Shown in pieces: positions 16,913 through 64,000 of a DNA stretch of 64,000 nt. Numbering within the stretch: position 1 is the stretch's first letter; each line of letters opens with the position of its first letter. Made by a program: the position numbers and the translations under genes. Source of the stretch: a bacterium (GTDB taxonomy: Bacteria > Elusimicrobiota > Elusimicrobia > Elusimicrobiales > UBA9959); NCBI GenBank assembly GCA_021786295.1, contig JAJYNO010000030.1:62001-126000 (forward strand). Direction: 5' to 3'. The notes under the pieces are model-generated. The model was not told the origin of the DNA and did not search any database. It saw nothing but the letters and a program-made list of their open reading frames with translations.

Positions 16913-18037
16913 CTATGAACTCAAATCCCGGCGGCGGCGGACGCCCAGCAGGGGGGACAGCCCCCCGGCGACCGCCGCCTCCAGCGCCGCGGGCGGCGAG
17001 GGAAGCCGACCGGCCTCGATCACCAGAGAAACCCCGCGCCGCCGCAGCGAGGCCGCCGAAAGCCCGGAGACGCCGCACGCCACCGCGACGGGCTTTCCGG
17101 CCCGCCTGGCGGCGGCGATGGCCGCCCCCGGGGCCTTGCCGTAGAAGGTCTGCGCGTCGAAGCTCCCCTCGCCGGTGATGAGCAGGTCGGCCGCGGCGAG
17201 TTTCCTGTAGAACCCGGTCCGCTCCAGCACGAAGGCCGCCCCGTCGTCCAGCTCCGCCCCGAAGAAAGCCGCCAGACCCGCGCCGAGCCCGCCGGCGGCG
17301 GCGCCCCCGCGCAGGCTGGCTATCTCCACGCCCGCGCATTCCCGCACCACGCGGGCGTAGTTCAGCAGCGCCCTGCCGATGAAGTCCACCTCACGCGGTC
17401 CGGCTCCCTTCTGCGGTCCGAAGACCCGCGCGGAGCCCATAGGGCCGCAGAGCGGGTTGCGCACGTCGGCCAGCCCGGTCACGCGCACCCCCTTTAGCAG
17501 CCGGCGCGCGGCGCCGGGGAACACGGCCGCGAGCGAGGCCAGCCCCCTGGCGCCCGGCTGCACCGGACGGCCGCGGCTGTCCACGAGCGAGAAGCCGAAG
17601 GCCTGGGCGCAGCCAGCGCCCCCGTCGTTGGAGGCGCTGCCCCCCAGGCCCACCACTATCTCCCTGGCCCCGCGCAGCGCGGCCTCCGCCATCAGCTGCC
17701 CTACGCCCCGGGTAGAGGCGTCGAGAGGGCGCAGCCTAGCGCCTTTCAGGCGCCGCAGGCCCGCCGCCTCGGCCATCTCTATCACCGCGGTGCGGCCGGC
17801 CAGCAGCCAGCGCGCCTCCAGGGGCCGGCCGAGCGGCCCCTCCACCCGGCTCCTGACCAGCTTGCCGCCGAGCGCCGGCAGCAGCGCCTCCAGCAGCCCG
17901 TCCCCGCCGTCGGCGATCGGCAGCACGTCGACGCGCGCCGAGGGCGCTATTTTTTTCACGCCCCTGGCGGCGGCCTCGGCGGCTTCGGAGGCCGTAAGGG
18001 TCCCTTTGAAGGAATTGGGCGCTATCAAAATTCTCAT
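16913..18037 (-). CDS. Glycerate 2-kinase (GarK/GlxK family)
   Basis: The 374-aa protein starts MRILIAPNSFKGTLTASEAA, the standard opening of the GarK family, which fixes the start at 18037 instead of the ORF-track 18502. Other family blocks are PIADGGDGLLEALL, GLGGSASNDGGAGCAQAFG and the C-terminal GEGSFDAQTFYGKAPG. It phosphorylates glycerate to 2-phosphoglycerate. A TATCAT hexamer lies exactly 6 bases before the ATG and no separate Shine-Dalgarno is present, suggesting a leaderless mRNA. Confidence 0.9.
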   Translation of the reverse strand: MRILIAPNSFKGTLTASEAAEAAARGVKKIAPSARVDVLPIADGGDGLLEALLPALGGKLVRSRVEGPLGRPLEARWLLAGRTAVIEMAEAAGLRRLKGARLRPLDASTRGVGQLMAEAALRGAREIVVGLGGSASNDGGAGCAQAFGFSLVDSRGRPVQPGARGLASLAAVFPGAARRLLKGVRVTGLADVRNPLCGPMGSARVFGPQKGAGPREVDFIGRALLNYARVVRECAGVEIASLRGGAAAGGLGAGLAAFFGAELDDGAAFVLERTGFYRKLAAADLLITGEGSFDAQTFYGKAPGAAIAAARRAGKPVAVACGVSGLSAASLRRRGVSLVIEAGRLPSPPAALEAAVAGGLSPLLGVRRRRDLSS

Positions 18038-18043
18038 CCCTAA

Positions 18044-18049
18044 ATGATA
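18044..18049 (-). promoter_or_regulatory. -10-like TATCAT 6 nt before the glycerate kinase ATG
   Basis: TATCAT (minus strand 18049-18044) is separated from the ATG at 18037 by 6 bases, so transcription would begin at or next to the start codon. The -35 is weak. Confidence 0.4.
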
Positions 18050-18091
18050 GAATAATAAGAAGCGCGGCTGAAGACCGCACGGGGATTTTTT

Positions 18092-18748
18092 ATGCAAGCA
18101 CACAAACCCAAGATAGTCTACCGCTACGGGGAGGGCCTTTACGTCAACCTCACCAACAGCTGTCCCACGTCCTGCGTCTTCTGCATCAAGAACACGTGGA
18201 AGATGGACTACCGCGGCAACGACCTGAACCTGGCCGGCCTCGAGCCGGCCCCGTCGGAAGTAGTAGCCGCCGCGAAGGCGGAATGGGCGGCCGCCCCGTT
18301 CAGGGAGCTGGTCTTCTGCGGCTACGGCGAACCCACGATGCGGCTGGAGGCGCTGCTGACCTGCGCGCGCCTGGTGAAGTCGGGCCGCGCCGCCCCCATC
18401 CCCCCCTCGCTGCGCGTGCGGCTCAACACCAACGGTCTTGCCAACGCCGTCTGGGGGCGGAACGTGGTGCCGGAAATGAAGGGGCTGATAGACGCCGTGC
18501 ACGTCAGCCTCAACACGGCTGACCCGGTCCAGTGGCTGGAGCGCATGCGCCCGATGGAGCCGTGGAAAGACACCGGTTTCGAGAAGGTCAAGGAATTCAT
18601 CAGGGAAGCGGCGCTGCTGCTGCCGGAGGCCGTGGCCACCGCGGTCGAGGACGATACCGTGGACATGGCGAAGTTCCGGAAGCTGGTCTCGGACCTCGGG
18701 GCCGAGGTGCGCCTGCGCCCGCGCCTGGAAACGGAGGAGCGCGCCTGA
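18092..18748 (+). CDS. Radical SAM protein, TatD-associated type
   Basis: The 218-aa protein has the cluster motif C-x3-C-x2-C in NSCPTSCVFCIK (about residues 29-36) close to the N-terminus, then GYGEPTMR, as in small radical SAM proteins often encoded beside tatD nucleases (TIGR04038-like). No tatD gene is adjacent here. The substrate is unknown. CGGGGA precedes the ATG. The stop overlaps the next start (TGATG), so it heads a plus-strand gene run. Confidence 0.78.
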   Translation: MQAHKPKIVYRYGEGLYVNLTNSCPTSCVFCIKNTWKMDYRGNDLNLAGLEPAPSEVVAAAKAEWAAAPFRELVFCGYGEPTMRLEALLTCARLVKSGRAAPIPPSLRVRLNTNGLANAVWGRNVVPEMKGLIDAVHVSLNTADPVQWLERMRPMEPWKDTGFEKVKEFIREAALLLPEAVATAVEDDTVDMAKFRKLVSDLGAEVRLRPRLETEERA

Positions 18749-30856: not shown

Positions 30857-33136
30857 TCAGTCGGTCAGTTCCGCGGGGTCGGCGAACCGGTTCTGCATGT
30901 CGGTCACGTCCGAGATGGTCTTATCGAAGCTGTTGTCGCGGCCGTTGAAGAAGTTATAGGTCTGCGTCACGTCGGCTTCGCCTTTCACGCGCTTGTCGGT
31001 GTGCACGTACACCGCGGCCGAGACTTCCTTCGGGTCCACCAGCTGCACCACTACCTTCAGGAAGTCCTCGTATGAGAGGCGGCTCTTGGACTTGCCGGCC
31101 GCAACGTCGGAGAGCCGGTCGGACTGGGCCTTCCAGCCGCCGGCGTTCCGCACCGACATGATGTCCCTTATCACCTGGGTGGCCGAATAGGCCAGGTTCC
31201 TCACTATGTCCAGCGGGTTGGTGCCGCCGTCCTGGATGCCGGCGGAGTCATAGCCGAGGCGTTTCGCGGCGGCGCTGTAATCGTAGTCCACCTCTCCCTT
31301 CTTGTTTATCGTGAAGAGGTCCATCACCTTGTCCACGATGTCGGCGTTGACCTCGCGGGCCACGTTCATGAAGGCTTTCATGATAGCGTCGGCCGGGGCG
31401 AAGATGATCTCCTGCACGCCGCGCTGGCTGACCATCAGCTTGAAGCTCATCAGGGCGGCCTTGTAGGTCTTGGAGGGCTGCGCATAGGAATCGCCGTCGG
31501 GGCCGTTCTGCTCCTGGGGAGGCAGCGGCGGGAAGATCTCGGTCGCGGGGAGCGTGTTGCCGTCGTCGGTGCCGTTGCCGTGCGTGCCGACGTACTTCAG
31601 GACGCCGTTGGCCTTGTCTATCATGTAGCGGGCGGTGCCGTCGCCCTCCTTCACGAAACCCTCGTACTGCTGGTAAAGCAGGGCCGGCTGCGTGACGCTG
31701 CCGTCGGTGTTCTCCTTGTTGATCACGTAGACGTTCTTCTGCGAGTCGTACTTGACCACGGTCCCGACGAACGGGATATTGAGCGAGTTGCCGTTGGAGA
31801 CGCGCTGGCGCTGCTGCACGTGTATCGTCTCGCCGTCCTTGTCCAGCGACTGATAGCGGTTGTAGGAAGAGGTCCAGGTCGTGTCGTGGGAGTGCAGCAC
31901 CGGGACCACGATGTGGAAGCTGTTGGAATGGCCGTGGTAGATGTCGCTGCCGGCGAAGCTGGGGTTGGAGTCGAGCGCGTTGCCGGTCTGCTCGGCCACG
32001 CCGGAGATCTCGCCCGCGCCGCTGGAGGCCTGGTCTTCCTCCGAGAAGTGGTTGAAGTGGAGGCCCATCTCTATGAAGCGCTTCAGGATGCCGAAGTCGC
32101 CGTTCATGAACCTGACCAGGTTCTGCATCTGCTCGGGGTTGTTCGGGTCCAGCAGGAACTCCACCAGCAGCTTCCTGCCGAAGGTCTGGGTGTGCCCGAA
32201 AGAGAGCTGGAAGGAGATGGCCTTGTTGATCTGGTCGAAGATGGCGCCGTTGAGCTGCCTGTTGGCGGCCTGGGCTATCATGTTCGTGCCGCTGATCAGG
32301 CCCAGGTCCGTCATGGGGATCTGGACGGTGGAGGCCGAGGCGCCGACGCTGCGGGCCACGACGCGGTCCAGGCGCAGGCGCAGCCGCAGCGTGTTGGCGT
32401 CCATCCTGTAGAGGGTCACGGAGGGCTTGGCTTCGCGGGTCTCACCGGCGGAGACGGAGACGTTTACGATATTGTCTATCGTGGCGCCCGCGCCAAGGCC
32501 GAAGCCCATGTGGAGGATAAAAGGCATCTTCCAGATCTCGCCGACGGTCATGTTCCGCAGGCGGCTAACGGTGACCGGCAGAACGGTCTTGACCTGGTAG
32601 AGCTTCGCCAGGGTCCCCAGCTCCCGGCAGTATTTGTCGCTCTCGAGCGGGCGCACGACCCAGGAATCGCCCTCCATGCTGCCGGAAAGGCTGACGTTCA
32701 GGGACCCGGCGCCGGGGATGGCCACCACGGAATGGCCGATGTTGCCGCCCACGTTAACCCCCACCACGTCTATCAGGGCCACCCGGTTGTCGGGATACTT
32801 CCTCATATAGCGCTGGAATTTGCCGCCGACGGCTATGGCGTCCCCGGCCAGTTTGCCGTCCTTATTGAGCTTTATCTGGGCGTTCTTGCAGAGGCCGTCC
32901 ATCGTACCGTCCTTAAGGTTCTCCCAGAAGTGCTCCAGCTGGCTGGTCTCCGCGTTCTGGGTGGAAACCGTCGGGGTCCTCATCTCCGAGGAGCGCGTCT
33001 GGATGGACGCCACCATGTCGGACAGGGAGCCGGAGCCGGCGGCGCCGTCGAAGTCGAGCGCCGCCGCGCCGGAAGCCATTACCGCCAGGGAAAGGATGAC
33101 CGCGGGGACGGAAACGATTTTTTTGGTGGATCTCAT
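30857..33136 (-). CDS. Large secreted protein of unknown function
   Basis: The 759-aa product starts MRSTKKIVSVPAVILSLAVM, with likely cleavage near ASGAAA. The mature N-terminus is LDFDG, echoed in the secreted protein at 38176-38877 (VNFDG). The remainder mixes beta-rich stretches with Gly/Ser-rich loops (residues about 380-410 and 500-560) and a helical end. No catalytic motif is evident. I chose ATG 33136 over the ORF-track 33187: TATACT lies exactly 6 bases upstream and a conserved TTGGCCTCTTA box 20 bases before that. An envelope or surface role is inferred. Confidence 0.72.
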   Translation of the reverse strand: MRSTKKIVSVPAVILSLAVMASGAAALDFDGAAGSGSLSDMVASIQTRSSEMRTPTVSTQNAETSQLEHFWENLKDGTMDGLCKNAQIKLNKDGKLAGDAIAVGGKFQRYMRKYPDNRVALIDVVGVNVGGNIGHSVVAIPGAGSLNVSLSGSMEGDSWVVRPLESDKYCRELGTLAKLYQVKTVLPVTVSRLRNMTVGEIWKMPFILHMGFGLGAGATIDNIVNVSVSAGETREAKPSVTLYRMDANTLRLRLRLDRVVARSVGASASTVQIPMTDLGLISGTNMIAQAANRQLNGAIFDQINKAISFQLSFGHTQTFGRKLLVEFLLDPNNPEQMQNLVRFMNGDFGILKRFIEMGLHFNHFSEEDQASSGAGEISGVAEQTGNALDSNPSFAGSDIYHGHSNSFHIVVPVLHSHDTTWTSSYNRYQSLDKDGETIHVQQRQRVSNGNSLNIPFVGTVVKYDSQKNVYVINKENTDGSVTQPALLYQQYEGFVKEGDGTARYMIDKANGVLKYVGTHGNGTDDGNTLPATEIFPPLPPQEQNGPDGDSYAQPSKTYKAALMSFKLMVSQRGVQEIIFAPADAIMKAFMNVAREVNADIVDKVMDLFTINKKGEVDYDYSAAAKRLGYDSAGIQDGGTNPLDIVRNLAYSATQVIRDIMSVRNAGGWKAQSDRLSDVAAGKSKSRLSYEDFLKVVVQLVDPKEVSAAVYVHTDKRVKGEADVTQTYNFFNGRDNSFDKTISDVTDMQNRFADPAELTD

Positions 33137-33142
33137 ACCTAA

Positions 33143-33179
33143 AGTATACGGGAAAGCGCCGGCGCTCATAAGAGGCCAA
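33143..33179 (-). promoter_or_regulatory. Shared-box promoter: TTGGCCTCTTA-N20-TATACT-N6-ATG
   Basis: On the minus strand TTGGCCTCTTA (33179-33169), a 20-base spacer and TATACT (33148-33143) precede the ATG at 33136 by 6 bases. The same 11-mer, spacing and hexamer precede the PLD-like gene at 63100. The TTA of the box lies at -35. Confidence 0.65.
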
Positions 33180-37422: not shown

Positions 37423-38064
37423 CTATGCCTCGAACAAATGCCGGAAACGCCGCTCGTAATACATTACCGCGAGGCTGAGGATGGCGAAATCGTCGAGATA
37501 CCCGATACCCGGAATGGCGTCCGGAATAAGGTCGAAAGGCATGATCAGATAGAACAGGGCGCCGTAGGCGACAAGTTTATCCACCAGGGTCAGTTTTCTG
37601 GAGCGTATGACCTTCATGGTCCCGGAAATGCACCGTTTCCAGCTTTCCCCCCAGGACTGGAACGACAGGATCTTGACTATGGACCCATGAACTTTCCGGC
37701 GGTTTTCCGGTTTCGCGCCTATCTGAGAAAGCCCCGCGACCAGGATATCGGAATTGTTCGCCGCCTTGCTCAGGAAATCCGGCGGAAGCCCCAGCGTCCT
37801 GTCCACCGAATGTCCGAAGACCGCGGGCTGCCCGTGCGCCAGGACCGCCAGCGCCGTTTCCGAATCGGCGGCTATTCTGCCTTCTGCTATCAGCCGGTGC
37901 GCCATACGGACGGCGGCGTCGCAATAGAATCCCGGCAATTCCGCGCCGGATGGCCTGGCCCGCCACCGGCGAAGCGTCATTCCGGAGATCCCCATATATT
38001 CGGCGGCCTTCTCGGGGGAAATGCCCGCCTCCCTGACCAGTCTTAACAAATGTGAATACTTCAT
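37423..38064 (-). CDS. HTH domain fused to DUF1232 (YkvA-like) domain
   Basis: The 213-aa protein begins with a helix-turn-helix region (LVREAGISPEKAAEYMGISGMTLRRW, quoted in part as EKAAEYMGISGMTLRRW). It ends with a DUF1232/YkvA domain (KLVAYGALFYLIMPFDLIPDAIPGIGYLDD). DUF1232 is a short, partly hydrophobic family of unknown role, usually alone, so the HTH fusion is unusual. The promoter is a perfect TTGACA-N17-TATAAT with the ATG only 6 bases after the -10 hexamer. Confidence 0.78.
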   Translation of the reverse strand: MKYSHLLRLVREAGISPEKAAEYMGISGMTLRRWRARPSGAELPGFYCDAAVRMAHRLIAEGRIAADSETALAVLAHGQPAVFGHSVDRTLGLPPDFLSKAANNSDILVAGLSQIGAKPENRRKVHGSIVKILSFQSWGESWKRCISGTMKVIRSRKLTLVDKLVAYGALFYLIMPFDLIPDAIPGIGYLDDFAILSLAVMYYERRFRHLFEA

Positions 38065-38070
38065 GAACTT

Positions 38071-38099
38071 ATTATAGGCATACGCGCCGGCCTTGTCAA
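38071..38099 (-). promoter_or_regulatory. Perfect consensus promoter TTGACA-N17-TATAAT, leaderless
   Basis: On the minus strand TTGACA (38099-38094), 17 bases, then TATAAT (38076-38071). Six bases separate the hexamer from the ATG at 38064, so the transcript should start at the start codon. No Shine-Dalgarno is possible. Confidence 0.8.
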
Positions 38100-55281: not shown

Positions 55282-55310
55282 ATAGTAGCAAATACGGGGC
55301 GGGTTTACAA
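55282..55310 (-). promoter_or_regulatory. Candidate rpsF-run promoter TTGTAA-N17-TACTAT
   Basis: On the minus strand TTGTAA (55310-55305) includes the TAA stop of the methyltransferase gene. TACTAT (55287-55282) lies 9 bases before the rpsF ATG. Both hexamers match the consensus at 4 of 6 positions. Confidence 0.45.
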
Positions 55311-56069
55311 CGGCGAACAGACAAGGACCTGCCTGGGGGAGTCCGGCCCGAAGGGGCGGCGGCGGAAGTCGCCGTAGCGCCGCAGCGTTCCGAACCCGTT
55401 GCAGCGCACCAGCGCCAGCAGCTCCTCGGGGAAAAAGCACCGCAGATTCAAGGCTTTTTTCAGGGTCCTGCCGTCCTTTTCGCGCCTGTAATACCAGGTT
55501 ATCCTGGACACCTGGGCCCGCTTGTCGTAGCTGTAGCTCTCGTTGACCAGCATCTTCCCTCCGCCAGCCGGGTCGTCGTAATAAGCCACGGGCAGCAGTT
55601 CCTCCGGATCGCGGCTCAGGTAGCGCGGGTCCGGATTGAAGACGTCGAAAACGAAGCGCCCGCCCGGGGCCAGCGCCCCCCTGACGGAGCGGAAAAGCCC
55701 CTCCAGGTCCTCCCTGCGCCCCAGGTGCTGCAGCGAATTGAAGGCCATGAAGACCAGCTTGAACCTGCGCCGGAACGAGAACCTCCTGGCGTCGCCCCTG
55801 ACCAGCGGCAGCTCCACCCCGGCCTCCCGCGCCTTTTCCCCGGCCCGGGCCAGCATAGGGCCGGAGAAGTCCAGCCCCGTCACGTCCACGCCGGCCTTTT
55901 TCAGCGGGATGGAGAGCCGGCCGGTGCCGCAGGCCAGCTCCAGCACCGGCCCCCGGGCCCGGCGGCATTCTGAAAGGTAGAATCCGTAGTCGTCCTCGTA
56001 AGGCGCGTTGAAAGCGTCGTACTGCGCCCCGTCCCAGTAGACTTCGGAACCGTCGGAAAGCCTGGACAT
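55305..56069 (-). CDS. Class I SAM-dependent methyltransferase
   Basis: The 254-aa protein has the SAM-binding motif VLELACGTGRLSIPL (about residues 43-57) and the following acidic VTGLDFSGPML and DVFNPDP blocks. The substrate is unknown. Two in-frame ATGs exist (56075 and 56069). The second is exactly 6 bases after TAGAAT, so I prefer MSRLSDGS as the start with a leaderless mRNA. It lies just upstream of rpsF but has its own promoter. Confidence 0.82.
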   Translation of the reverse strand: MSRLSDGSEVYWDGAQYDAFNAPYEDDYGFYLSECRRARGPVLELACGTGRLSIPLKKAGVDVTGLDFSGPMLARAGEKAREAGVELPLVRGDARRFSFRRRFKLVFMAFNSLQHLGRREDLEGLFRSVRGALAPGGRFVFDVFNPDPRYLSRDPEELLPVAYYDDPAGGGKMLVNESYSYDKRAQVSRITWYYRREKDGRTLKKALNLRCFFPEELLALVRCNGFGTLRRYGDFRRRPFGPDSPRQVLVCSPL

Positions 56070-56075
56070 TCCCAT

Positions 56076-56081
56076 ATTCTA
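56076..56081 (-). promoter_or_regulatory. -10-like TAGAAT 6 nt before the methyltransferase ATG
   Basis: TAGAAT is followed by ATGGGA and then the preferred ATG at 56069. No -35 is evident. Confidence 0.4.
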
Positions 56082-56122: not shown

Positions 56123-56128
56123 TATAAT
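56123..56128 (+). promoter_or_regulatory. Extended -10 (TGGTATAAT) 6 nt before a GTG start
   Basis: TGGTATAAT fits the TGnTATAAT extended -10 form. Six bases later comes GTG at 56135, so the transcript would start at the start codon. Confidence 0.55.
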
Positions 56129-56134
56129 CTCTGC

Positions 56135-57898
56135 GTGACCGGGACGACGGATTGGAGGAGGCTGGCGGCGCCGGCGGGAATACTGCTGGCGGCCTTCCTG
56201 GCCTTCGGCCAGACGCTGCGGGTGGGCTTCATGTGGGACGATCACCGCATGATAGAGCAGAACCCGCATATAGCGCTGAGCGCCGCCGATCTGGAGCGGG
56301 CGTTCAAAGGCGATCCTTTCGACGAGGGCCTGAACTACTACCGCCCCCTGCAAACGGTCAGCGACATGGCCGATTTCGCAGTCTGGGGCCTGCGCCCCGC
56401 CGGCTACCACCTAACCAACCTCCTCTTTCACGCCGCCGCGGCCCTCCTGTTCTTCTACCTCGCGCTGGAGCTCGGCTTCCCGCGGCCCGCCGCTTTCTGG
56501 GCCGCCGTTCTGCTGGCGGCGCACCCGGCCGCCGTGGAGCAGCTGCTGGTGGTGGCAGGGCGGGCGGAGCTGGCCTCGTCGGCCTGCCTGCTGGCCTCGC
56601 TGCTGCTGTTCCTGCGCGGGGGCGACGCGCTCTCTTTCGTCCTCTTCCTGGCCGCGATGGGCTTCAAGGAGAACGGCGTGGTCACGCCGGCGCTGGCGGC
56701 GCTCTCCCTCTGGTACCTGAAGCGCCCGAAGGCGGAATACCGCAGGCTGATCCCGTTCTTCGCCGCTATCCCGCTCTATCTGCTGGCCAGGCACGCCGCG
56801 CTCGGCATGGGCATTTTCTCCAGGGGTTTCCAGCCGGTGCTATCCGGCCTTTTCCTTAAAGTGCCGCAGACGGTGCTGGTCTATCTGAAGGAGGCAGTGC
56901 TGCCTTTCGATATGCACTCCCACCGCATGGAGCCGCAGTCCGCCCTGCTTAACTGGACGGCCCTGCCTGCCCTGGCCGCGGCGGCCTGGCTGCTGTTCAG
57001 GCGCGGCTCCAGGACGGGGCTTTTCTGCGCGGGCTGGTATCTGCTTAACCTCTCGCCGAAGATGCCGCTGCTGGCCGCCAACGACCTGATGCTGGACCAC
57101 TGGGTGTACCTGGGCAACGCCGGGCTCTTCGTCTGGGCCGCGGCGGCCCTGTATCCCCGCCCGCGCCTGCGGCCCCTGCTGCCGGCGGCGGCCGCCGCTC
57201 TGGTCCTGGCCTCGGCCTTCAACATACCGAAGCGGAACGGCGACCTGAAGAACTACGAATACTCCGCCCTTTACTCCTCCTCGAAGCCGATGCTCTACAA
57301 CCTGGCGCGGGAATACTACTCGCGCGGGGCCTTCCTCAAGAGCGAGGTGCTGCTCGAACGGATCTGCGCCCAGGCGCCCGACGATCCGCTCTATCTCAAC
57401 GGCCTGGCCCTCGCGCGCTGGAAGACAGGCGACGTGCCCGGCGCGCTGAAGGCGCTGGACGCCGCGCTGGCCCTGCGGCCCGGCGACCCCGACACCCTCT
57501 TCAACCGCTACTCGGTGCTGCGCGGCGCCGGCAGGGACTCCGAGGCCGCGGAGACCGTGGCCGGGATACTGCGGCTTAAGCCGGACTATATCCCCGCCCA
57601 GCTGGCGCTGGCGCGCTCGGCCGCCGCGGACGGCGGGGACGGCAAGGCGGAGGGCATCTACGAAAAGGTCCTGGCGGAGGACCCGGTTAACCTGGAGGCG
57701 CTCAACGATTACGGGATACTGCTGGCCAGGCGCGGGGACCTGGCCGGGGCAGAGAAGCTTTTCAGGAAAGCGCTGGGGATCGCGCCGGGGCTGCACAGCG
57801 CGGCGGAGAACCTGCGCCGGCTGCAGGAGATCAGGGCCGGGGGCGTTCCCGCGGCGGAGCGGAAGGTCAGCGGCGCAGTCCGGCCTGGAACTCCCTGA
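56135..57898 (+). CDS. TMTC-like membrane protein with C-terminal TPRs
   Basis: The 587-aa protein has about 10 membrane segments (about 10-370). The first loop, FMWDDHRMIEQNPHI then LNYYRPLQTVSDMADFAVWGL, is typical of the TMTC/GT-C family with TPRs. Residues about 390-570 form four to five TPRs (LLERICAQAPDDPLYLNGLAL, AEKLFRKALGIAPGLHSA). The GTG start at 56135 is chosen from the extended -10 located 6 bases upstream. O-glycosylation or assembly of surface glycans is possible. Its 3' end overlaps the convergent gene by 32 bases. Confidence 0.75.
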   Translation: MTGTTDWRRLAAPAGILLAAFLAFGQTLRVGFMWDDHRMIEQNPHIALSAADLERAFKGDPFDEGLNYYRPLQTVSDMADFAVWGLRPAGYHLTNLLFHAAAALLFFYLALELGFPRPAAFWAAVLLAAHPAAVEQLLVVAGRAELASSACLLASLLLFLRGGDALSFVLFLAAMGFKENGVVTPALAALSLWYLKRPKAEYRRLIPFFAAIPLYLLARHAALGMGIFSRGFQPVLSGLFLKVPQTVLVYLKEAVLPFDMHSHRMEPQSALLNWTALPALAAAAWLLFRRGSRTGLFCAGWYLLNLSPKMPLLAANDLMLDHWVYLGNAGLFVWAAAALYPRPRLRPLLPAAAAALVLASAFNIPKRNGDLKNYEYSALYSSSKPMLYNLAREYYSRGAFLKSEVLLERICAQAPDDPLYLNGLALARWKTGDVPGALKALDAALALRPGDPDTLFNRYSVLRGAGRDSEAAETVAGILRLKPDYIPAQLALARSAAADGGDGKAEGIYEKVLAEDPVNLEALNDYGILLARRGDLAGAEKLFRKALGIAPGLHSAAENLRRLQEIRAGGVPAAERKVSGAVRPGTP

Positions 57899-58268: not shown

Positions 58269-58717
58269 ACGGCCACCTTTATCACTATCTTCAGCACCCG
58301 GCCCGGCGCTCCGGCCGCCAGGCGCGGCGCGTGCGCGTCCTCCGGGAACAGCACGGCCAGCTCGCCCGCCCGCAGCAGGACCGGGGTCCAGTCCGACGCG
58401 CGGCCAAAAGCTATGTCCTTCTTTTCATCGTAAGCTTCCAGCTCGCGGAAACGTCCCGCCGGCGCCCAGCCTATGACCTCGGCCCCGGCGGCCACGAACT
58501 GCACGTCGGCGTATCTCCTGTGCACCTCGAAGCGGGGCTCCGCCGCCGGCGACGTGCCGTAGCGCTGGACTATAGCGTAGACGCGCCGGCCCTCGAGCTC
58601 GTACTCGCCGTCCGCGAGCCCGGCCAGGCCCGGCCTGCGCAGGAACTCCAGCGCCCCGGCCAGGCCCGGCAGGCCCGGCAGGCGGGCCGCGGCGTCCGAG
58701 AGGGAGGCCGCTATCAC
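58265..58717 (-). CDS. YhcH/YjgK/YiaL-family cupin (sugar anomerase-like)
   Basis: The 150-aa protein has the family pattern FEVHRRYADVQFVAAGAEVIGW, EAYDEKKDIAF and LFPEDAHAPRLAAGAP ending KIVIKVAV, with His/Glu/Asp residues for one metal. The E. coli relative NanQ (YhcH) speeds anomer interconversion of sialic acid; others are untested. The start is GTG with GGAGGAGGGG upstream, overlapping the murU-like stop (GTGA). In this operon it could supply the anomer used by the AmgK-type kinase. Confidence 0.82.
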   Translation of the reverse strand: MIAASLSDAAARLPGLPGLAGALEFLRRPGLAGLADGEYELEGRRVYAIVQRYGTSPAAEPRFEVHRRYADVQFVAAGAEVIGWAPAGRFRELEAYDEKKDIAFGRASDWTPVLLRAGELAVLFPEDAHAPRLAAGAPGRVLKIVIKVAV

Positions 58718-59418
58718 CGCCCCTCCTCCGCCGCCGCGCGCAGCCTGACCGACTCCAGGCGCTCCAGGTCCCCTATGTCGCTCCAGAACGGGGACTCGTC
58801 GACAAAGCCGTTTATCTTCCGGCCCGCGGCGGCCAGCCGCAGGTAGACGTCGGTGACCGAGAAGACCCCCTCTTCCGTCATTTCGGGGAAGATCTCCGGA
58901 GAGACCACCTGCACGCCGCCGAAGGCCAGCGCCCTCAGCCCGGCGGCTGGGCCCCCCTCGCGCCCCCTGAGCCGCAGTTCCTCGTCGAAAAGCAGCCTGC
59001 GGCGCGACGGGCGGTCGCGCACGGCCAGCGTGGCCAGCGCCCCCGAGGACAGATGGGCGGAATAGAGCGCTTTCAGGTCCGTCTCGGACCAGACGTCGGC
59101 GTTGTACGCGAAGAACGGCTCCCCTCCGGAGAGGAAGGGGGCGGCCTTCTTGAGCCCGCCGCCGGTCTCGAGCGGACGCTCCTCCTCCAGCGACAGGCGC
59201 GTCCCCAGGCCGAAGCCCCCGGCGGAGAGGTAATCGGCTATCTTCCCGCTGAAATGGTGCGCGTTGACCACGGCCTCGGTGACTCCGGCCTCCGCCAGGC
59301 GGCGCAGCACTCGGCCGAGCATCGGCACGCCGCCGACCTCGACCAGGGCCTTGGGCGCGCGGTCGGTGAGCGGGCGCAGACGCGTGCCCAGCCCCGCGGC
59401 AAAGACCATAGCCTTCAT
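58714..59418 (-). CDS. MurU-like sugar-1-phosphate nucleotidyltransferase
   Basis: The 234-aa protein has the nucleotidyltransferase motif FAAGLGTRLRPLTDRAPKALVEV, the LETGGGLKKAAPFL block close to MurU, and the metal Asp in FAYNADVW (MurU: NGDVW). Near the C-terminus is SPFWSDIG. MurU makes UDP-MurNAc from MurNAc-1-phosphate; mannose-1-phosphate or another sugar is possible. The start at 59418 overlaps the upstream kinase stop (ATGA). The ORF-track 60381 start is rejected as lying in the kinase gene. Confidence 0.82.
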   Translation of the reverse strand: MKAMVFAAGLGTRLRPLTDRAPKALVEVGGVPMLGRVLRRLAEAGVTEAVVNAHHFSGKIADYLSAGGFGLGTRLSLEEERPLETGGGLKKAAPFLSGGEPFFAYNADVWSETDLKALYSAHLSSGALATLAVRDRPSRRRLLFDEELRLRGREGGPAAGLRALAFGGVQVVSPEIFPEMTEEGVFSVTDVYLRLAAAGRKINGFVDESPFWSDIGDLERLESVRLRAAAEEGR

Positions 59419-60875
59419 TTCCCCGGCCCCGGCAGCTCCCGGTGGGAGAGCTCCACGCGCACGCCGTACTTCTTCCTGAGCCTGGCCGCCAGGGACTCGG
59501 CGCAGTAGACCGAGCGGTGCAGCCCGCCGGTGCAGCCGAAATTGACCATCAGCGAGGTGAAGTTGCGCGACAGGTAGTTCTCCACGCTCATCTCGACCAC
59601 CGCGAAGACGTTCCCGAGGAACTTCTCGACCTCCGGCTCCTTTTTCAGGAAGTCGGCGACCTGCCTGTCCCTGCCTGAGAGGCGCGCGTACTCCGGGTGG
59701 CGGCCCGGGTTGGGCAGCGCGCGGCAGTCGAAGACGAAGCCGCCGCCGTGCCCTTTGTCGTCGAGCGGCAGGCCGTTCTTGAAAGAGAAACTGGTTATGC
59801 GCACGGTCAGCCCCAGCCTGGTCTTGCCGAACTGGCGCAGATAGGAGGAGGCGGCTATGCGCTTGAAGCAGGCGGTCAGCTCCGGCACCTTCACCTCCAG
59901 TTCCGCCCTGCGCAGCAGCCACTCTATATTGCGCACGGCGTAGGGCACGCTGTTCAGGAAATGGGTCTTGCCTTCGTAGAAGCCGCGCAGGCCGTAGGCG
60001 CCCATAGCCTGCATGATGCGGATGTAGACGAACGCGGGATAATAGCGCAGGAAGGAGGCGCGGTCCTGGCCTGAGACCGAGAGATAATAGTCCCGCAGCC
60101 CGGTCCTCTCCTCCGGCTGCAGATCGGCCTTGGCGTCGTAGAGCAGCGAGGCCAGGTCGTACTGCGCCGCGCCGCGCCGGCCGCCCTGGTAGTCTATGAA
60201 CCACGGCTCGCCGCCGCGCAGCATGACGTTGCGGCTCTGGAAGTCGCGGTAAAGAAAATAGCCGGAAGGGGCTTCCGTCAGGAAATCCGCGAAGCGGGAG
60301 AAGTCCTCCTCCAGCTTGGCCTCGTTGAACGGTATCTTGGCCAGCTTGAGGAAGTAGTACTTGAAGTAGTTCAGGTCCCACGTTATGGACTGCCGGTCGA
60401 AGGCCGCGCGCGGATAGCAGTACTTCAGGTCCATCCCCTCGCGCACCCGCGCCTGGAAGCGCGGCAGCCAGTCCAGCGTCCTTTTATAGGCGGCAAGGAC
60501 CTGCGGGGGCAGCTCCGGCCCTTTGCGCTCGGAGACGAGGTACTCGAAGAGCGTTACCTGGCCCAGGTCCTCCTCCAGGTATATCCCCTGAGGCTGGTCC
60601 TCCGCGTAGATCTCCGGCACGGGCAGGCCCGCGGCGCGGAACTGCCGCGAGAAAGACAGGAAAGCGCGGTTCTCCTCCCTGTCGGGACCGAAGGCGCCTA
60701 TGACGGAGCGGTCCCCGCCGCGCAGGCGGAAAAGCCGGCGGGCGGAGCCGTCGGCCTTGAGCGGCTCGAAGGCCTCCGGCCCGCGGCCGAAGGTCCTGCG
60801 GTAAAGGTCCCTGAGGGCGGGCTCGTGGCCGGAGCGGAGCTCCCCGGCTTCCTTCTCCCTGTTCTTTAAGGGCAT
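59415..60875 (-). CDS. AmgK-type anomeric sugar kinase fused to a RapZ C-terminal domain
   Basis: The 486-aa protein has an aminoglycoside-phosphotransferase/AmgK-like kinase (about 15-340): GSARRLFRL, YLEEDLGQVTLFEYL, catalytic loop YRDFQSRNVM (usual His is Tyr) and the metal loop FIDYQGGRRG. Residues about 365-486 match the RapZ C-terminal domain (FVFDCRALPNPG, LSGRDRQVADFL, NFGCTGGLHRSVYCAESLA). AmgK phosphorylates MurNAc/GlcNAc at C1; the RapZ C-domain senses glucosamine-6-phosphate in enterobacteria. The MurU-like gene overlaps directly. ATG 60875 lies 7 bases after TATAAT. Confidence 0.82.
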   Translation of the reverse strand: MPLKNREKEAGELRSGHEPALRDLYRRTFGRGPEAFEPLKADGSARRLFRLRGGDRSVIGAFGPDREENRAFLSFSRQFRAAGLPVPEIYAEDQPQGIYLEEDLGQVTLFEYLVSERKGPELPPQVLAAYKRTLDWLPRFQARVREGMDLKYCYPRAAFDRQSITWDLNYFKYYFLKLAKIPFNEAKLEEDFSRFADFLTEAPSGYFLYRDFQSRNVMLRGGEPWFIDYQGGRRGAAQYDLASLLYDAKADLQPEERTGLRDYYLSVSGQDRASFLRYYPAFVYIRIMQAMGAYGLRGFYEGKTHFLNSVPYAVRNIEWLLRRAELEVKVPELTACFKRIAASSYLRQFGKTRLGLTVRITSFSFKNGLPLDDKGHGGGFVFDCRALPNPGRHPEYARLSGRDRQVADFLKKEPEVEKFLGNVFAVVEMSVENYLSRNFTSLMVNFGCTGGLHRSVYCAESLAARLRKKYGVRVELSHRELPGPGK

Positions 60876-60882
60876 AAAATGG

Positions 60883-60888
60883 ATTATA
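60883..60888 (-). promoter_or_regulatory. TATAAT 7 nt before the AmgK-RapZ ATG
   Basis: The minus strand reads TATAATCCATTTTATG, with no Shine-Dalgarno. This gives the four-gene cassette its own leaderless promoter. The -35 is weak. Confidence 0.5.
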
Positions 60889-60916: not shown

Positions 60917-62152
60917 TCAGTCGGCGGAGAGCGCTTCGAGGGCCGAGCGGAGCGGTCCGAGAAAGGAGGAGGCCCGCAAGTCGTGCTCCTCGTCGTTCCA
61001 GACCGCGGCGAGGCAGAACTGCCCGGACCCGGCGTTGCTGAGCAGCCAGACCGCCGAGTAGAGCCCGGGGAAGCCGCCCCCTCCGCCGCCGGCGTAAAGA
61101 TAGCCCCCCGGCACCTGGACGGGCGGACGGCCCAGCTCCAGCAGGCCCAGCGCCGGCTCGTCGCCACGGCCGGCGAAGAAGGCCATCAGCCTGCAGAGAT
61201 CGGCCGGGGAGGCGGCCCAGCCTATTTTATCGAGTCCCAGCGCGCCGCGCCCAAAAGCCTTCGCCGTCAGAGGTTCGCGGGCCAGGCCGTCCAGGAAGCC
61301 GTAGCGCTCGTCCCGCGGCAGGTTGATGTATTTCAGCGCCTCCCCGGTGGAAGCCTGAAGCCTGAGCGCCTCCGAGGTCTTTAAAAAAGGCTCAAGGAGA
61401 CCCGGGGCGGAATGACCGAGGGCGGTCAGATCGTGTTCCACCGAGCGCCTGCCCAGCGCGCGCAGCAGCGCGTCAGAGGCGGTATCGTCCCCCTCCGCCA
61501 GCGTCAGCGCGGCCAGGGTATGCACGGTCAGCGGCGAGCCTGCCGGCCAGCGGTTCAGAGGGCCTGGGGGCGCGGACCTGTCCGAGTCGCGCAGCTTCAC
61601 GATCCTCTCCCAGGGCGCTCCCTGCCTCAGGACCTCGCCCAGCAGGTAAAGCCTGTAGGCGGGCCCGGCGGCGAGCTCCTCGTCGGGATTCAGGGCCTCC
61701 AGCGGTTCGGCGTCCTTGCCGAGCCGCATGATCAGCAAAGCCTTGCGCCCCGGCAGAGCGGAGATCCGCTCCTTCACCTCCGCCAGGGCCGGGTCCAGCC
61801 GGTAGGCAGGGCTGAAGAAGATGCCGTCTATCAGGCCGCTGTCCCGGTCCAGGGACAGGGCCACCGGGATGCGCCAGCCGGAGGCGGTGTCGAAGAAAAA
61901 ATGCCCGGTGAAGGGGCCGGAACTCATCAGCACCGTTTCCGACACGGCGCCGTGCGCCGCGTAGAGGCCGCTGAAGACGGCGTTCAGCTGCCTGAGCGAG
62001 ATCTGCCTGAAGAAGGACGCGGAGAAGAGCCGCTCCGTCCCGGCCGGCTCCGCCGCCACGAGCGCGGCCGCTTTGCCTGCCGCCTGCTCCACCCCCGCCG
62101 AGGACGCGGCGGAGAGCAGCGCCAGCAGGGCCGTGACCAGCAGCGATCTCAT
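60917..62152 (-). CDS. Exported serine beta-lactamase-like protein without catalytic residues
   Basis: The 411-aa protein has a signal peptide (to about 20), an N-terminal small alpha/beta domain (about 40-130) and a class A beta-lactamase-like domain (about 135-405). The overall pattern is clear (LYLLGEVLRQGAPWERIVKL, PLTVHTLAALTL). But the SxxK motif (family GSAFKLYVL) reads GPAYRLYLL at 163-171, SDN reads GDD at 221-223, and the KTG-equivalent KGGSEPG region reads AGGGGGGFPG. It is therefore probably non-hydrolytic. The start at 62152 lies 6 bases after TATAAT. Confidence 0.75.
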   Translation of the reverse strand: MRSLLVTALLALLSAASSAGVEQAAGKAAALVAAEPAGTERLFSASFFRQISLRQLNAVFSGLYAAHGAVSETVLMSSGPFTGHFFFDTASGWRIPVALSLDRDSGLIDGIFFSPAYRLDPALAEVKERISALPGRKALLIMRLGKDAEPLEALNPDEELAAGPAYRLYLLGEVLRQGAPWERIVKLRDSDRSAPPGPLNRWPAGSPLTVHTLAALTLAEGDDTASDALLRALGRRSVEHDLTALGHSAPGLLEPFLKTSEALRLQASTGEALKYINLPRDERYGFLDGLAREPLTAKAFGRGALGLDKIGWAASPADLCRLMAFFAGRGDEPALGLLELGRPPVQVPGGYLYAGGGGGGFPGLYSAVWLLSNAGSGQFCLAAVWNDEEHDLRASSFLGPLRSALEALSAD

Positions 62153-62158
62153 GATAAA

Positions 62159-62164
62159 ATTATA
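62159..62164 (-). promoter_or_regulatory. TATAAT 6 nt before the beta-lactamase-like ATG
   Basis: The minus strand reads TATAATTTTATCATG. Transcription would begin at the start codon. It overlaps the likely promoter of the divergent scpB-like gene (TACAAT at 62163-62168, plus strand). Confidence 0.55.
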
Positions 62165-62207: not shown

Positions 62208-62990
62208 ATGGAACAGCTGGTACTGAAAGATATCAGGGAAGGGATAGGGGTGCTGACCCTCAACAATCCCGCCCGCCGCAACGCGCTGAGCATGGAACTC
62301 TGCAGGCAGCTCTCCGCCGCGCTGGAGGACTTCGGCAGGCAGAAGCTCCCGGTGGCCGTGCTGCGCGCCGAGGCCGGCGCCAAGGTCTGGTCCGCCGGCC
62401 ACGACATCACGCAGCTGCCGAAGGTTCACAACGAACCTCTTTCCTACGACAGCCCGATGGAGGCGGCCTTCCGCTCGATCCAGGACTATCCCGGTCCGGT
62501 CATAGCGATGATACAGGGCAGCGTCTGGGGCGGCGCCACGGACCTGGCCGTCACCTGCGACATCGCGGTGGGCGACGAGACCTCCTCCTTCGCGATCACC
62601 CCGGTTAAGATGGGGCTGCCCTACAACGCCTCCGGCATCATGCACTTCATCAACAGGGTCGGCATCAACGTCGCGCGCGAGATGTTCTACACCGCTGAGC
62701 CGGTTAAGGCCGAACGCGCCTATCACGTCGGCATCCTGAACCACCTGATAAGCTCCCGGGAGATCGAGGACTTCACGATGGAGCTGGCCAGGACGATAGC
62801 CTCCAACTCCCCGCTGGCGGTTTCCGTGGTGAAGGAGCAGTTCCGGATACTCTCCGAATCCTACCAGATAACCCCCGAGTCCTTCGAGCGCATACAGGCG
62901 CTGCGCCGCAAGGTCTACAACAGCTCCGATTACGCCGAGGGCATAAAAGCCTTCCTGGAGAAGCGCAGGCCCGAGTTCAAAGGCCATTGA
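62208..62990 (+). CDS. scpB: Methylmalonyl-CoA decarboxylase (crotonase family)
   Basis: The 260-aa protein follows E. coli ScpB closely along its length: VWSAGHDITQLP (catalytic-site His), IQGSVWGGATDLAVTCD, ITPVKMGLPYNASGI (catalytic Tyr), HVGILNHLI and the C-terminal FLEKRRPEFKGH. It converts methylmalonyl-CoA to propionyl-CoA. GGAGGCAGGGA precedes the ATG. No mutase or CoA-transferase is in the window; sucCD and korAB elsewhere connect to the same succinyl-CoA pool. Confidence 0.9.
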   Translation: MEQLVLKDIREGIGVLTLNNPARRNALSMELCRQLSAALEDFGRQKLPVAVLRAEAGAKVWSAGHDITQLPKVHNEPLSYDSPMEAAFRSIQDYPGPVIAMIQGSVWGGATDLAVTCDIAVGDETSSFAITPVKMGLPYNASGIMHFINRVGINVAREMFYTAEPVKAERAYHVGILNHLISSREIEDFTMELARTIASNSPLAVSVVKEQFRILSESYQITPESFERIQALRRKVYNSSDYAEGIKAFLEKRRPEFKGH

Positions 62991-63056: not shown

Positions 63057-63093
63057 TTGGCCTCTTAAGGGCGGCCTTTCAGGTTCATATACT
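63057..63093 (+). promoter_or_regulatory. Shared-box promoter TTGGCCTCTTA-N20-TATACT-N6-ATG
   Basis: The 11-mer (63057-63067), the 20-base spacer and TATACT (63088-63093) are the same as upstream of the 759-aa secreted protein gene. The ATG at 63100 follows 6 bases later, without a Shine-Dalgarno. Confidence 0.65.
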
Positions 63094-63099
63094 CTTACT

Positions 63100-64000
63100 A
63101 TGGACCAAAAGATATTCGGCCGGAGACTCTACCCGGCGGCTTTCCTTATAATATCGGCTTCACTCCCGGCTGCGGCTCAGCCGTCGGCCTACGGGGACCT
63201 GGCGGCAAGGGCCGGGGCCCTATCCATCCCCGTCACGGCCGTGGCGGTCCCCGTCCCCGGCCTTCCTTCCAGGATCCCGGCCCCGAAGGTCGACACCGGG
63301 GACCCTCGCGCCATAGCCTCCCTTGACGAAGGACAGCTTGCGGCCGCTACCCCCGAGCAGAGGCTGGCGATGCTGCGGACCCTGATAAAATGGTCCCATC
63401 CCGACCAGAACAACCAGGACAGCTACGGTTCCGACCAGAAGAGCTACGAGGACGCCATCCTGAACATACTGCGCTCCTCTCCGGACGCGGCCTCCTTCGA
63501 CAGGCTTTACTACAACGTGGACGAATCCGCGCTGCTCAATTCCGTTCCCTGGGCCGGCGACATAACGGACCTGCGCAAGAAGTTCCTGGCCGCGACGACG
63601 CCCGGGGACTGGAAAGGGCTGGACAGCTACATCGACGTCGTAGACGGGACCACCAGCGCAGGCAGGAACCATATAGAATTCATGGTGGACGGGGCCAACG
63701 TGATGCCCAAGGCGGTCGCCGCGATCAAGGGCGCGAAGAGCTCCATCGACGTGGAGGTCTACCAGCTCGAGGGCGACGACATAGGCTGGGCCTTTACGAA
63801 GCTTCTGGCGCAGAAGGCGAAGGAGGGCGTGCAGGTACGCCTGGTAATAGACAAGTACGGCTCGGACCTGAAGAACGTGCAGGAGGTCGGCAAGATGCTC
63901 GCCTACCTCAACCAGAACGGGGGCGAGGCCATCCCGAACAAGGCCAGCCTGACCGGCCGCCGCGACCACCGCAAGGTGATGGTGATAGACGGCAGGATAG
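63100..64000 (+). CDS. Secreted phospholipase-D-family protein, 5' part (3' end outside window)
   Basis: The frame is open from ATG 63100 to the window end (300 codons) and is missing from the ORF track because no stop is present. The product has a signal peptide (MDQKIFGRRLYPAAFLIISA, cleavage after about AAAQ). A linker region follows, then the start of a PLD domain: IKGAKSSIDVEVYQLEGDD and the first HKD motif DHRKVMVIDG. A second HKD motif is expected beyond the window. Substrates could be phospholipids or nucleic acid. Confidence 0.8.
   Translation, partial: MDQKIFGRRLYPAAFLIISASLPAAAQPSAYGDLAARAGALSIPVTAVAVPVPGLPSRIPAPKVDTGDPRAIASLDEGQLAAATPEQRLAMLRTLIKWSHPDQNNQDSYGSDQKSYEDAILNILRSSPDAASFDRLYYNVDESALLNSVPWAGDITDLRKKFLAATTPGDWKGLDSYIDVVDGTTSAGRNHIEFMVDGANVMPKAVAAIKGAKSSIDVEVYQLEGDDIGWAFTKLLAQKAKEGVQVRLVIDKYGSDLKNVQEVGKMLAYLNQNGGEAIPNKASLTGRRDHRKVMVIDGRI

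What the first reader, a model, noticed from the sequence alone, without database searches (positions are those of the whole stretch)
38062..38099. Repeated -10-N6-start arrangement predicts leaderless mRNAs
The HTH-DUF1232 gene has a perfect TTGACA-N17-TATAAT with the ATG 6 bases after the -10. The same placing recurs at 18037 (TATCAT), 33136 (TATACT), 56069 (TAGAAT), 56135 (TGGTATAAT, GTG start), 62152 (TATAAT) and 63100 (TATACT), and with 7 bases at 60875 (TATAAT). None has a Shine-Dalgarno, while many other genes in the window do. In several cases the rule picks a start that also suits the protein. Leaderless transcription seems common in this lineage.
Basis: partly seen in the sequence, partly recalled or inferred. 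Interest (0 to 1): 0.65.

Follow-up and report, generated by a model that had tools for sequence, protein, structure and literature searches.

The report
Leaderless genes common in Elusimicrobia bacteria
In these uncultured Elusimicrobia bacteria, part of the genes (about one in twelve of those that start a transcript) have their promoter set so close to the start codon that the messenger RNA must begin at the start codon itself; this way of starting genes is known from other phyla, but I found no report of it for this one, and some of these promoters are shared by two genes that point away from each other.

Summary
All eight sites exist with the stated spacing. In 982 kb of the same genome (835 genes, start codons chosen without looking upstream), TATAAT-like hexamers peak sharply 6 bases before the start: 29 genes at N6 and 15 at N7, against 3.7 per offset. 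E. coli shows no peak; Deinococcus peaks at N6. Only 1 of 44 such genes has a Shine-Dalgarno motif, against 470 of 791 others. The sites sit at heads of transcription units. The organism is an Elusimicrobiota (class Elusimicrobia) with an intact anti-Shine-Dalgarno, so leaderless and SD-led genes coexist. The excess is about 4% of all genes and 8% of genes that head a unit. The peak recurs in the sister family and another family of the class, and is absent from two small samples.

Orthologs keep the arrangement. The 16-mer before glycerate kinase occurs exactly once in each of 32 genomes of the genus. Several sites are divergent promoters, some with both arms leaderless. Three genomes lost one leaderless gene but kept its promoter, now ahead of an SD-led gene. 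This is a known mechanism in a phylum for which I found no report. No mapped 5' ends exist. The HTH-DUF1232 gene itself is an untestable orphan with an atypically perfect -35.

The parts
38062..38099 (-). TTGACA (38094-38099) - N17 - TATAAT (38071-38076) - N6 - ATG (38062-38064): predicted leaderless promoter of the HTH-DUF1232 gene
   Evidence: Read directly; one of 44 N6/N7 sites in the genome sample. No full-length ortholog in the genus.
37423..38064 (-). HTH_23 + DUF1232 protein, 213 aa
   Evidence: Pfam PF13384 2.3e-6, PF06803 2.3e-13
18035..18055 (-). Conserved block TTATTCTATCATTTAG (18040-18055) holding TATCAT (18044-18049), N6, ATG (18035-18037); the other strand reads TGATAGAAT, an overlapping divergent -10
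   Evidence: Block in 23/23 Elusimicrobia orthologs compared; exactly once per genome in 32/32 genomes of the genus
16913..18037 (-). Glycerate kinase; the N-terminus MRILIAPNSFKG fixes the start codon
   Evidence: Pfam PF02595 4e-112; homologs of many phyla begin in the same way
18092..18748 (+). Radical SAM gene, divergent partner of glycerate kinase
   Evidence: Pfam PF04055; divergent in 23/23 relatives
33134..33179 (-). TTGGCCTCTTA (33169-33179) - N20 - TATACT (33143-33148) - N6 - ATG (33134-33136)
   Evidence: N6 or N7 kept in 19 of about 27 full-length homologs
30857..33136 (-). Predicted secreted protein, 759 aa, no Pfam or NCBIfam family
56067..56081 (-). TAGAAT (56076-56081) - N6 - ATG: leaderless promoter of the methyltransferase gene; one arm of a head-to-head pair
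   Evidence: TANNNT 5-6 bases from the start in 16/17 relatives that hold this gene next door
56123..56137 (+). TATAAT (56123-56128) - N6 - GTG: leaderless promoter of the TPR gene; other arm of the pair, 66 bp between starts
   Evidence: N6/N7 in 17 of 22 orthologs
55305..56069 (-). SAM-dependent methyltransferase gene
   Evidence: Pfam PF13649 6.1e-20
56135..57898 (+). TPR-repeat protein gene
   Evidence: Pfam TPR models
60873..60888 (-). TATAAT (60883-60888) - N7 - ATG
   Evidence: orthologs alternate between leaderless/short-leader (N6-N9, 11/24) and SD-led starts
59415..60875 (-). APH-type kinase fused to a RapZ C-terminal domain
   Evidence: Pfam PF01636, PF22740
62150..62168 (-). ATTGTATAATTTTA block with TATAAT (62159-62164) - N6 - ATG; the other strand reads TACAAT, an overlapping divergent -10
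   Evidence: N6 or N7 in 18/20 orthologs at 44-54% protein identity for most
60917..62152 (-). Beta-lactamase-fold (PF13354) gene with a signal-peptide-like N-terminus
62208..62990 (+). Enoyl-CoA hydratase gene, divergent and SD-led
   Evidence: Pfam PF00378; next to the gene in 20/20 relatives
63057..63102 (+). TTGGCCTCTTA (63057-63067) - N20 - TATACT (63088-63093) - N6 - ATG (63100)
   Evidence: same arrangement in the nearest relative G009

Best explanation
These are promoters of the housekeeping sigma factor whose -10 hexamer (TAKAAT-like, with an AT-rich stretch at -19 to -15 and usually little -35) stands 6, sometimes 7, bases before the start codon. RNA polymerase then starts on, or within about one base of, the A or G of the start codon, so the mRNA has no leader and no Shine-Dalgarno and is translated from its 5'-terminal AUG/GUG. 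This runs beside normal SD-led initiation in the same cell. Shown here: the geometry, its excess over chance, the lack of SD, the position at unit heads and the conservation. Inferred: the transcription start itself and the translation of the leaderless message. In several cases the same AT-rich core or a very short intergenic stretch also carries a -10 for a divergent gene; that these act as bidirectional promoters is inferred.
For: Sharp N6 peak with motif-blind starts, 29 vs 3.7, and the de novo positional scan finds two kinds of signal: SD-like words at 4-8 bases and TANNAT/TANANT at exactly 6. SD motif in 1/44 N6/N7 genes vs 470/791 others (Fisher 1.9e-15), although the 16S anti-SD is intact. 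N6/N7 starts are almost confined to unit heads: 40 of 44 in divergent or gap >40 genes. E. coli negative, Deinococcus positive by the same method. Conservation: glycerate kinase block in 23/23 Elusimicrobia orthologs and in 32/32 genus genomes, 62152 gene 18/20, 33136 family 19/27, 56135 gene 17/22. Glycerate kinase's canonical N-terminus fixes the start, so a leader longer than about 3 nt is not possible from this -10. In three genomes that lack the 62152 gene, ATTGTATAATTTTA remains between the hydratase gene and the next gene, which now has a leader and a GGGG-type SD: the block behaves as a promoter, not as a translation signal.
Against: No transcription start site has been mapped in this lineage. 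Some N6 hits are expected by chance (about 4 of 29). The -35 is weak, so some sites may depend on an activator. A tail at N8-N10 (25 observed, about 11 expected) suggests some 1-4 nt leaders rather than strictly leaderless messages. Gene starts come from my own coding-potential caller.
Confidence: 0.9

Rival explanations
1. The hexamers are not promoters but an A/T-rich translation signal (as in Bacteroidetes-type non-SD initiation); transcription starts further upstream.
For: Low structure and A/U-rich bases before a start codon can help ribosome binding; these genes lack SD.
Against: The signal is sequence-specific (TA...T), fixed at 6, and almost absent from genes inside operons, where a translation signal would be just as useful. 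Where the gene behind it is absent, the block is still there and the next gene has an SD. Blocks are near-symmetric and sit between divergent genes.
Confidence: 0.05
2. They are true promoters with short leaders; the real start codon lies downstream.
For: For genes with variable N-termini an internal ATG cannot be excluded; the 60875 gene shows N6-N9 variation among orthologs.
Against: The glycerate kinase N-terminus is fixed by homology across phyla. Orthologs of the 62152 and 56135 genes keep N6 before ATG/GTG while the codons behind it change. In-frame starts show the peak, out-of-frame ATGs do not.
Confidence: 0.08
3. Chance: AT-rich islands in a GC-rich genome produce TATAAT before ATG by composition.
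For: A background of 3.7 per offset exists.
Against: Neighbouring offsets N3-N5 hold 1, 0, 1 and N6 holds 29; conservation in orthologs.
Confidence: 0.02

Closest known systems
Leaderless genes with a TANNNT -10 motif in Deinococcus-Thermus (PMC12340547; PMC3160421)
   Same: -10 motif about 6-7 bp before the ORF, no SD, coexisting with SD-led genes, spacing conserved between orthologs
   Different: Here fewer genes (excess about 4% of all, 8% of unit heads) against one-third or more; commonest hexamers are TAGAAT, TATAAT and TATCAT rather than TACACT; the phylum is not mentioned in the main text of PMC3160421
Leaderless mRNAs of mycobacteria and other Actinobacteria (PMC4633059; PMC3160421)
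   Same: ATG/GTG at the predicted 5' end; no TTG starts among the 44 sites
   Different: The mycobacterial case is backed by TSS mapping, ribosome profiling and reporters; none exist here
Bacterial bidirectional promoters with overlapping -10 elements (PMC10268837 and the work it cites)
   Same: Near-symmetric -10 core able to serve both strands
   Different: Preferred E. coli/Salmonella distance between the two starts is 18 bp; the glycerate kinase and 62152 blocks share the TA step and imply about 23 bp, with one or both arms leaderless and both arms protein-coding

Membership tests
Leaderless gene (TA-led, sigma-70 type) | -10 hexamer about 6-7 bases before the start codon | tested here: met
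Leaderless gene (TA-led, sigma-70 type) | No Shine-Dalgarno | tested here: met
   1/44 vs 470/791
Leaderless gene (TA-led, sigma-70 type) | Start codon ATG or GTG | tested here: met
   38 ATG, 6 GTG, 0 TTG among 44; TTG is rare anyway, so this is weak
Leaderless gene (TA-led, sigma-70 type) | Gene heads a transcription unit | tested here: met
   40 of 44 hexamers lie before genes with a divergent neighbour or a gap >40
Leaderless gene (TA-led, sigma-70 type) | Transcript 5' end at the start codon | not testable with these tools
   Needs 5'-end RNA sequencing
Leaderless gene (TA-led, sigma-70 type) | Translation from the 5'-terminal codon | not testable with these tools
   Needs ribosome profiling, N-terminal proteomics or reporters
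Bidirectional promoter | Overlapping -10 elements on both strands between divergent genes | tested here: met
   18037 and 62152 blocks, with divergent partners kept in 23/23 and 20/20 relatives
Bidirectional promoter | Overlap specifically enriched at divergent leaderless sites (my own added test, not part of the published definition) | tested here: not met
   5/20 divergent vs 8/24 other N6/N7 sites have an overlapping reverse -10; so the claim is made for single loci only
Bidirectional promoter | Divergent transcription from the shared core | not testable with these tools
   Needs TSS mapping

The most novel reading that the evidence does not exclude
Elusimicrobia keep, over genus-wide distances, minimal head-to-head promoters in which one AT-rich core, or two cores within about 40-66 bp, start two protein-coding messages in opposite directions with one or both messages leaderless (glycerate kinase/radical SAM, 62152/hydratase, 56069/56135), so that nearly every base between the two start codons is promoter.
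Probability: 0.5. Interest if true: 0.55.

Novelty: new member of a known kind. Interest (0 to 1): 0.42.

Why it matters
Leaderless initiation has been proposed as an ancestral mode of translation, and its spread over bacterial phyla is used to argue about that. A clear, conserved case in Elusimicrobiota, together with sampled genomes in which it seems absent and a gene (60875) that switches between leaderless and SD-led starts within one genus, makes gain and loss traceable. It also has a practical side: start codons in these uncultured genomes can be corrected with the rule -10, N6, ATG/GTG.

Tried and rejected
A hairpin plus T-run (terminator-like) fused to the -10 was suspected from a few sites; the position profile shows only an AT-rich stretch at -19 to -15, and hairpins were not tested further. 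A consistent -35 was looked for and not found. The idea that the 16-mer before glycerate kinase marks a regulon was rejected: it occurs once per genome (sample scan). Overlapping reverse -10s as a general mark of divergent leaderless genes was not supported. Lomsadze 2018, Warman 2021 and de Groot 2014 are not held.

Full report
What was checked. The headline site reads TTGACA-AGGCCGGCGCGTATGCC-TATAAT-AAGTTC-ATG on the minus strand.

Organism. The closest glycerate kinase genes lie mostly on contigs named Elusimicrobia/Elusimicrobiales; the nearest, at 93%, is an unnamed bin, JAJYJH010000012.1. The genome is 2.3 Mb, 37 contigs, about 79% complete. The 16S rRNA ends GGATCACCTCCTTT, so the anti-Shine-Dalgarno is intact.

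Position test. I read 982 kb of the genome in stretches, called genes with a dicodon model, and chose starts nearest to the coding boundary without looking upstream. Hexamers TA[two of three of TAA]T then lie at offsets N0-N10: 0, 4, 1, 1, 0, 1, 29, 15, 8, 9, 8, with a background of 3.7. A de novo scan for position-specific words gave SD-like words and TANNAT/TANANT at 6. In-frame ATG and, weakly, GTG show the peak; TTG and out-of-frame ATG do not. SD-like motifs stand before 1 of 44 N6/N7 genes and 470 of 791 others. N6/N7 genes have a divergent upstream neighbour in 22 of 44 cases, against 75 of 466 SD genes, and few close co-directional neighbours. The excess is 8.1% of genes that head a unit and 0.8% of others.

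Controls and spread. By the same method 250 kb of E. coli K-12 gave no N6 hit, and 100 kb of Deinococcus plasmids gave TANNNT 5 vs 0.4 at N6. In the sister family of the same order N6 is 22 vs 5.4, in another family of the class (G184) 6 vs 0.12, in the same family G150 4 vs 0.4; G034 and G160 show no peak, on about 90-100 genes each. Samples other than the window's own genome are small.

Conservation. Before glycerate kinase the block TTATTCTATCATTTAG stands in 23 of 23 Elusimicrobia orthologs that could be read, N6 in 21 and N7 in 2, while the sequence further upstream has diverged; five more distant Elusimicrobiota genes (L080-L084) lack it. The 16-mer occurs exactly once in each of 32 genomes of the genus and in 3 of 27 others of the family; the reversed control occurs nowhere. 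The 62152 gene keeps ATTGTATAATT, N6/N7 in 18 of 20; the 33136 family keeps N6/N7 in 19 of about 27, the rest mostly being SD-led; the 60875 gene has N6-N9 in 11 of 24 and SD in many others. The 56135 gene keeps N6/N7 in 17 of 22, and its divergent neighbour 56069 keeps N5/N6 in 16 of 17, so this head-to-head leaderless pair is conserved. In some searches the start shown for an ortholog was, where several in-frame starts were possible, the one with a TANNNT at N6/N7, so those counts lean towards leaderless; the glycerate kinase counts do not, because its N-terminus is fixed. The HTH-DUF1232 gene has no full-length relative in the genus.

A natural deletion. Three genomes lack the 62152 gene. 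There the hydratase gene and the 60875 ortholog flank the retained ATTGTATAATTTTA block directly, and the 60875 ortholog has a leader of about 34 nt (counted from the -10) with GGGG before its ATG. A promoter present without its leaderless gene is what a transcription signal should do. That the gene was lost, rather than gained by the others, is inferred.

Divergent promoters. Glycerate kinase is divergent from a radical SAM gene in 23 of 23 relatives and the 62152 gene from a hydratase gene in 20 of 20. In both blocks -10 hexamers of opposite strands overlap and share the TA step. In L076 the two starts are 23 bp apart and both arms would be leaderless. This near-symmetric design resembles published bidirectional promoters (PMC10268837), with a different distance between the starts. 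Across all N6/N7 sites, however, overlap is not more frequent at divergent ones, so the claim is for these loci only.

Known or new. TANNNT about 12 bp (from the first T) before the start is the accepted mark of leaderless genes (PMC3160421), and Deinococcus shows the same 6-7 bp placing with experimental support (PMC12340547). GeneMarkS-2, as reported in PMC9581028, predicts leaderless transcription in 21.6% of bacterial species, so Elusimicrobia may sit in such tables. Searches for leaderless together with Elusimicrobia or Elusimicrobiota in 5.4 million open papers gave no paper on the subject; subscription journals are mostly not covered. I class it as a new member of a known kind.

Noticed in passing
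33167-33179 (-), 63057-63069 (+); loci L290-L305: TTGGCCTCTTA stands exactly 20 bases before the -10 (TANNNT) at two unrelated leaderless genes here and before the 33136 family in relatives, though gaps of 18-24 were allowed; it overlaps the -35 region and may be an activator site or an alternative -35 of a small regulon.
   Followed up: partly
18040-18055 (-): A 16-base non-coding block is unchanged and single-copy in 32/32 genomes of the genus while the protein next to it is about 70% identical.
   Followed up: yes
genome sample: TAGAAT makes up 16 of 44 leaderless -10 hexamers but 6 of about 86 at offsets 20-39 (Fisher P 9e-5); reason unknown.
   Followed up: no
58714-60875 (-): APH/AmgK-like kinase fused to a RapZ C-terminal domain, followed by a nucleotidyltransferase gene: possibly a cell-wall sugar recycling pair.
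   Followed up: no
L003 (G000:C13): Part of the 16S rRNA gene reads N in the held genome.
   Followed up: no
G160 and G034 samples: No N6 peak in about 90-100 genes each, so leaderless promoters may be lost or rare in some lineages of the class.
   Followed up: partly
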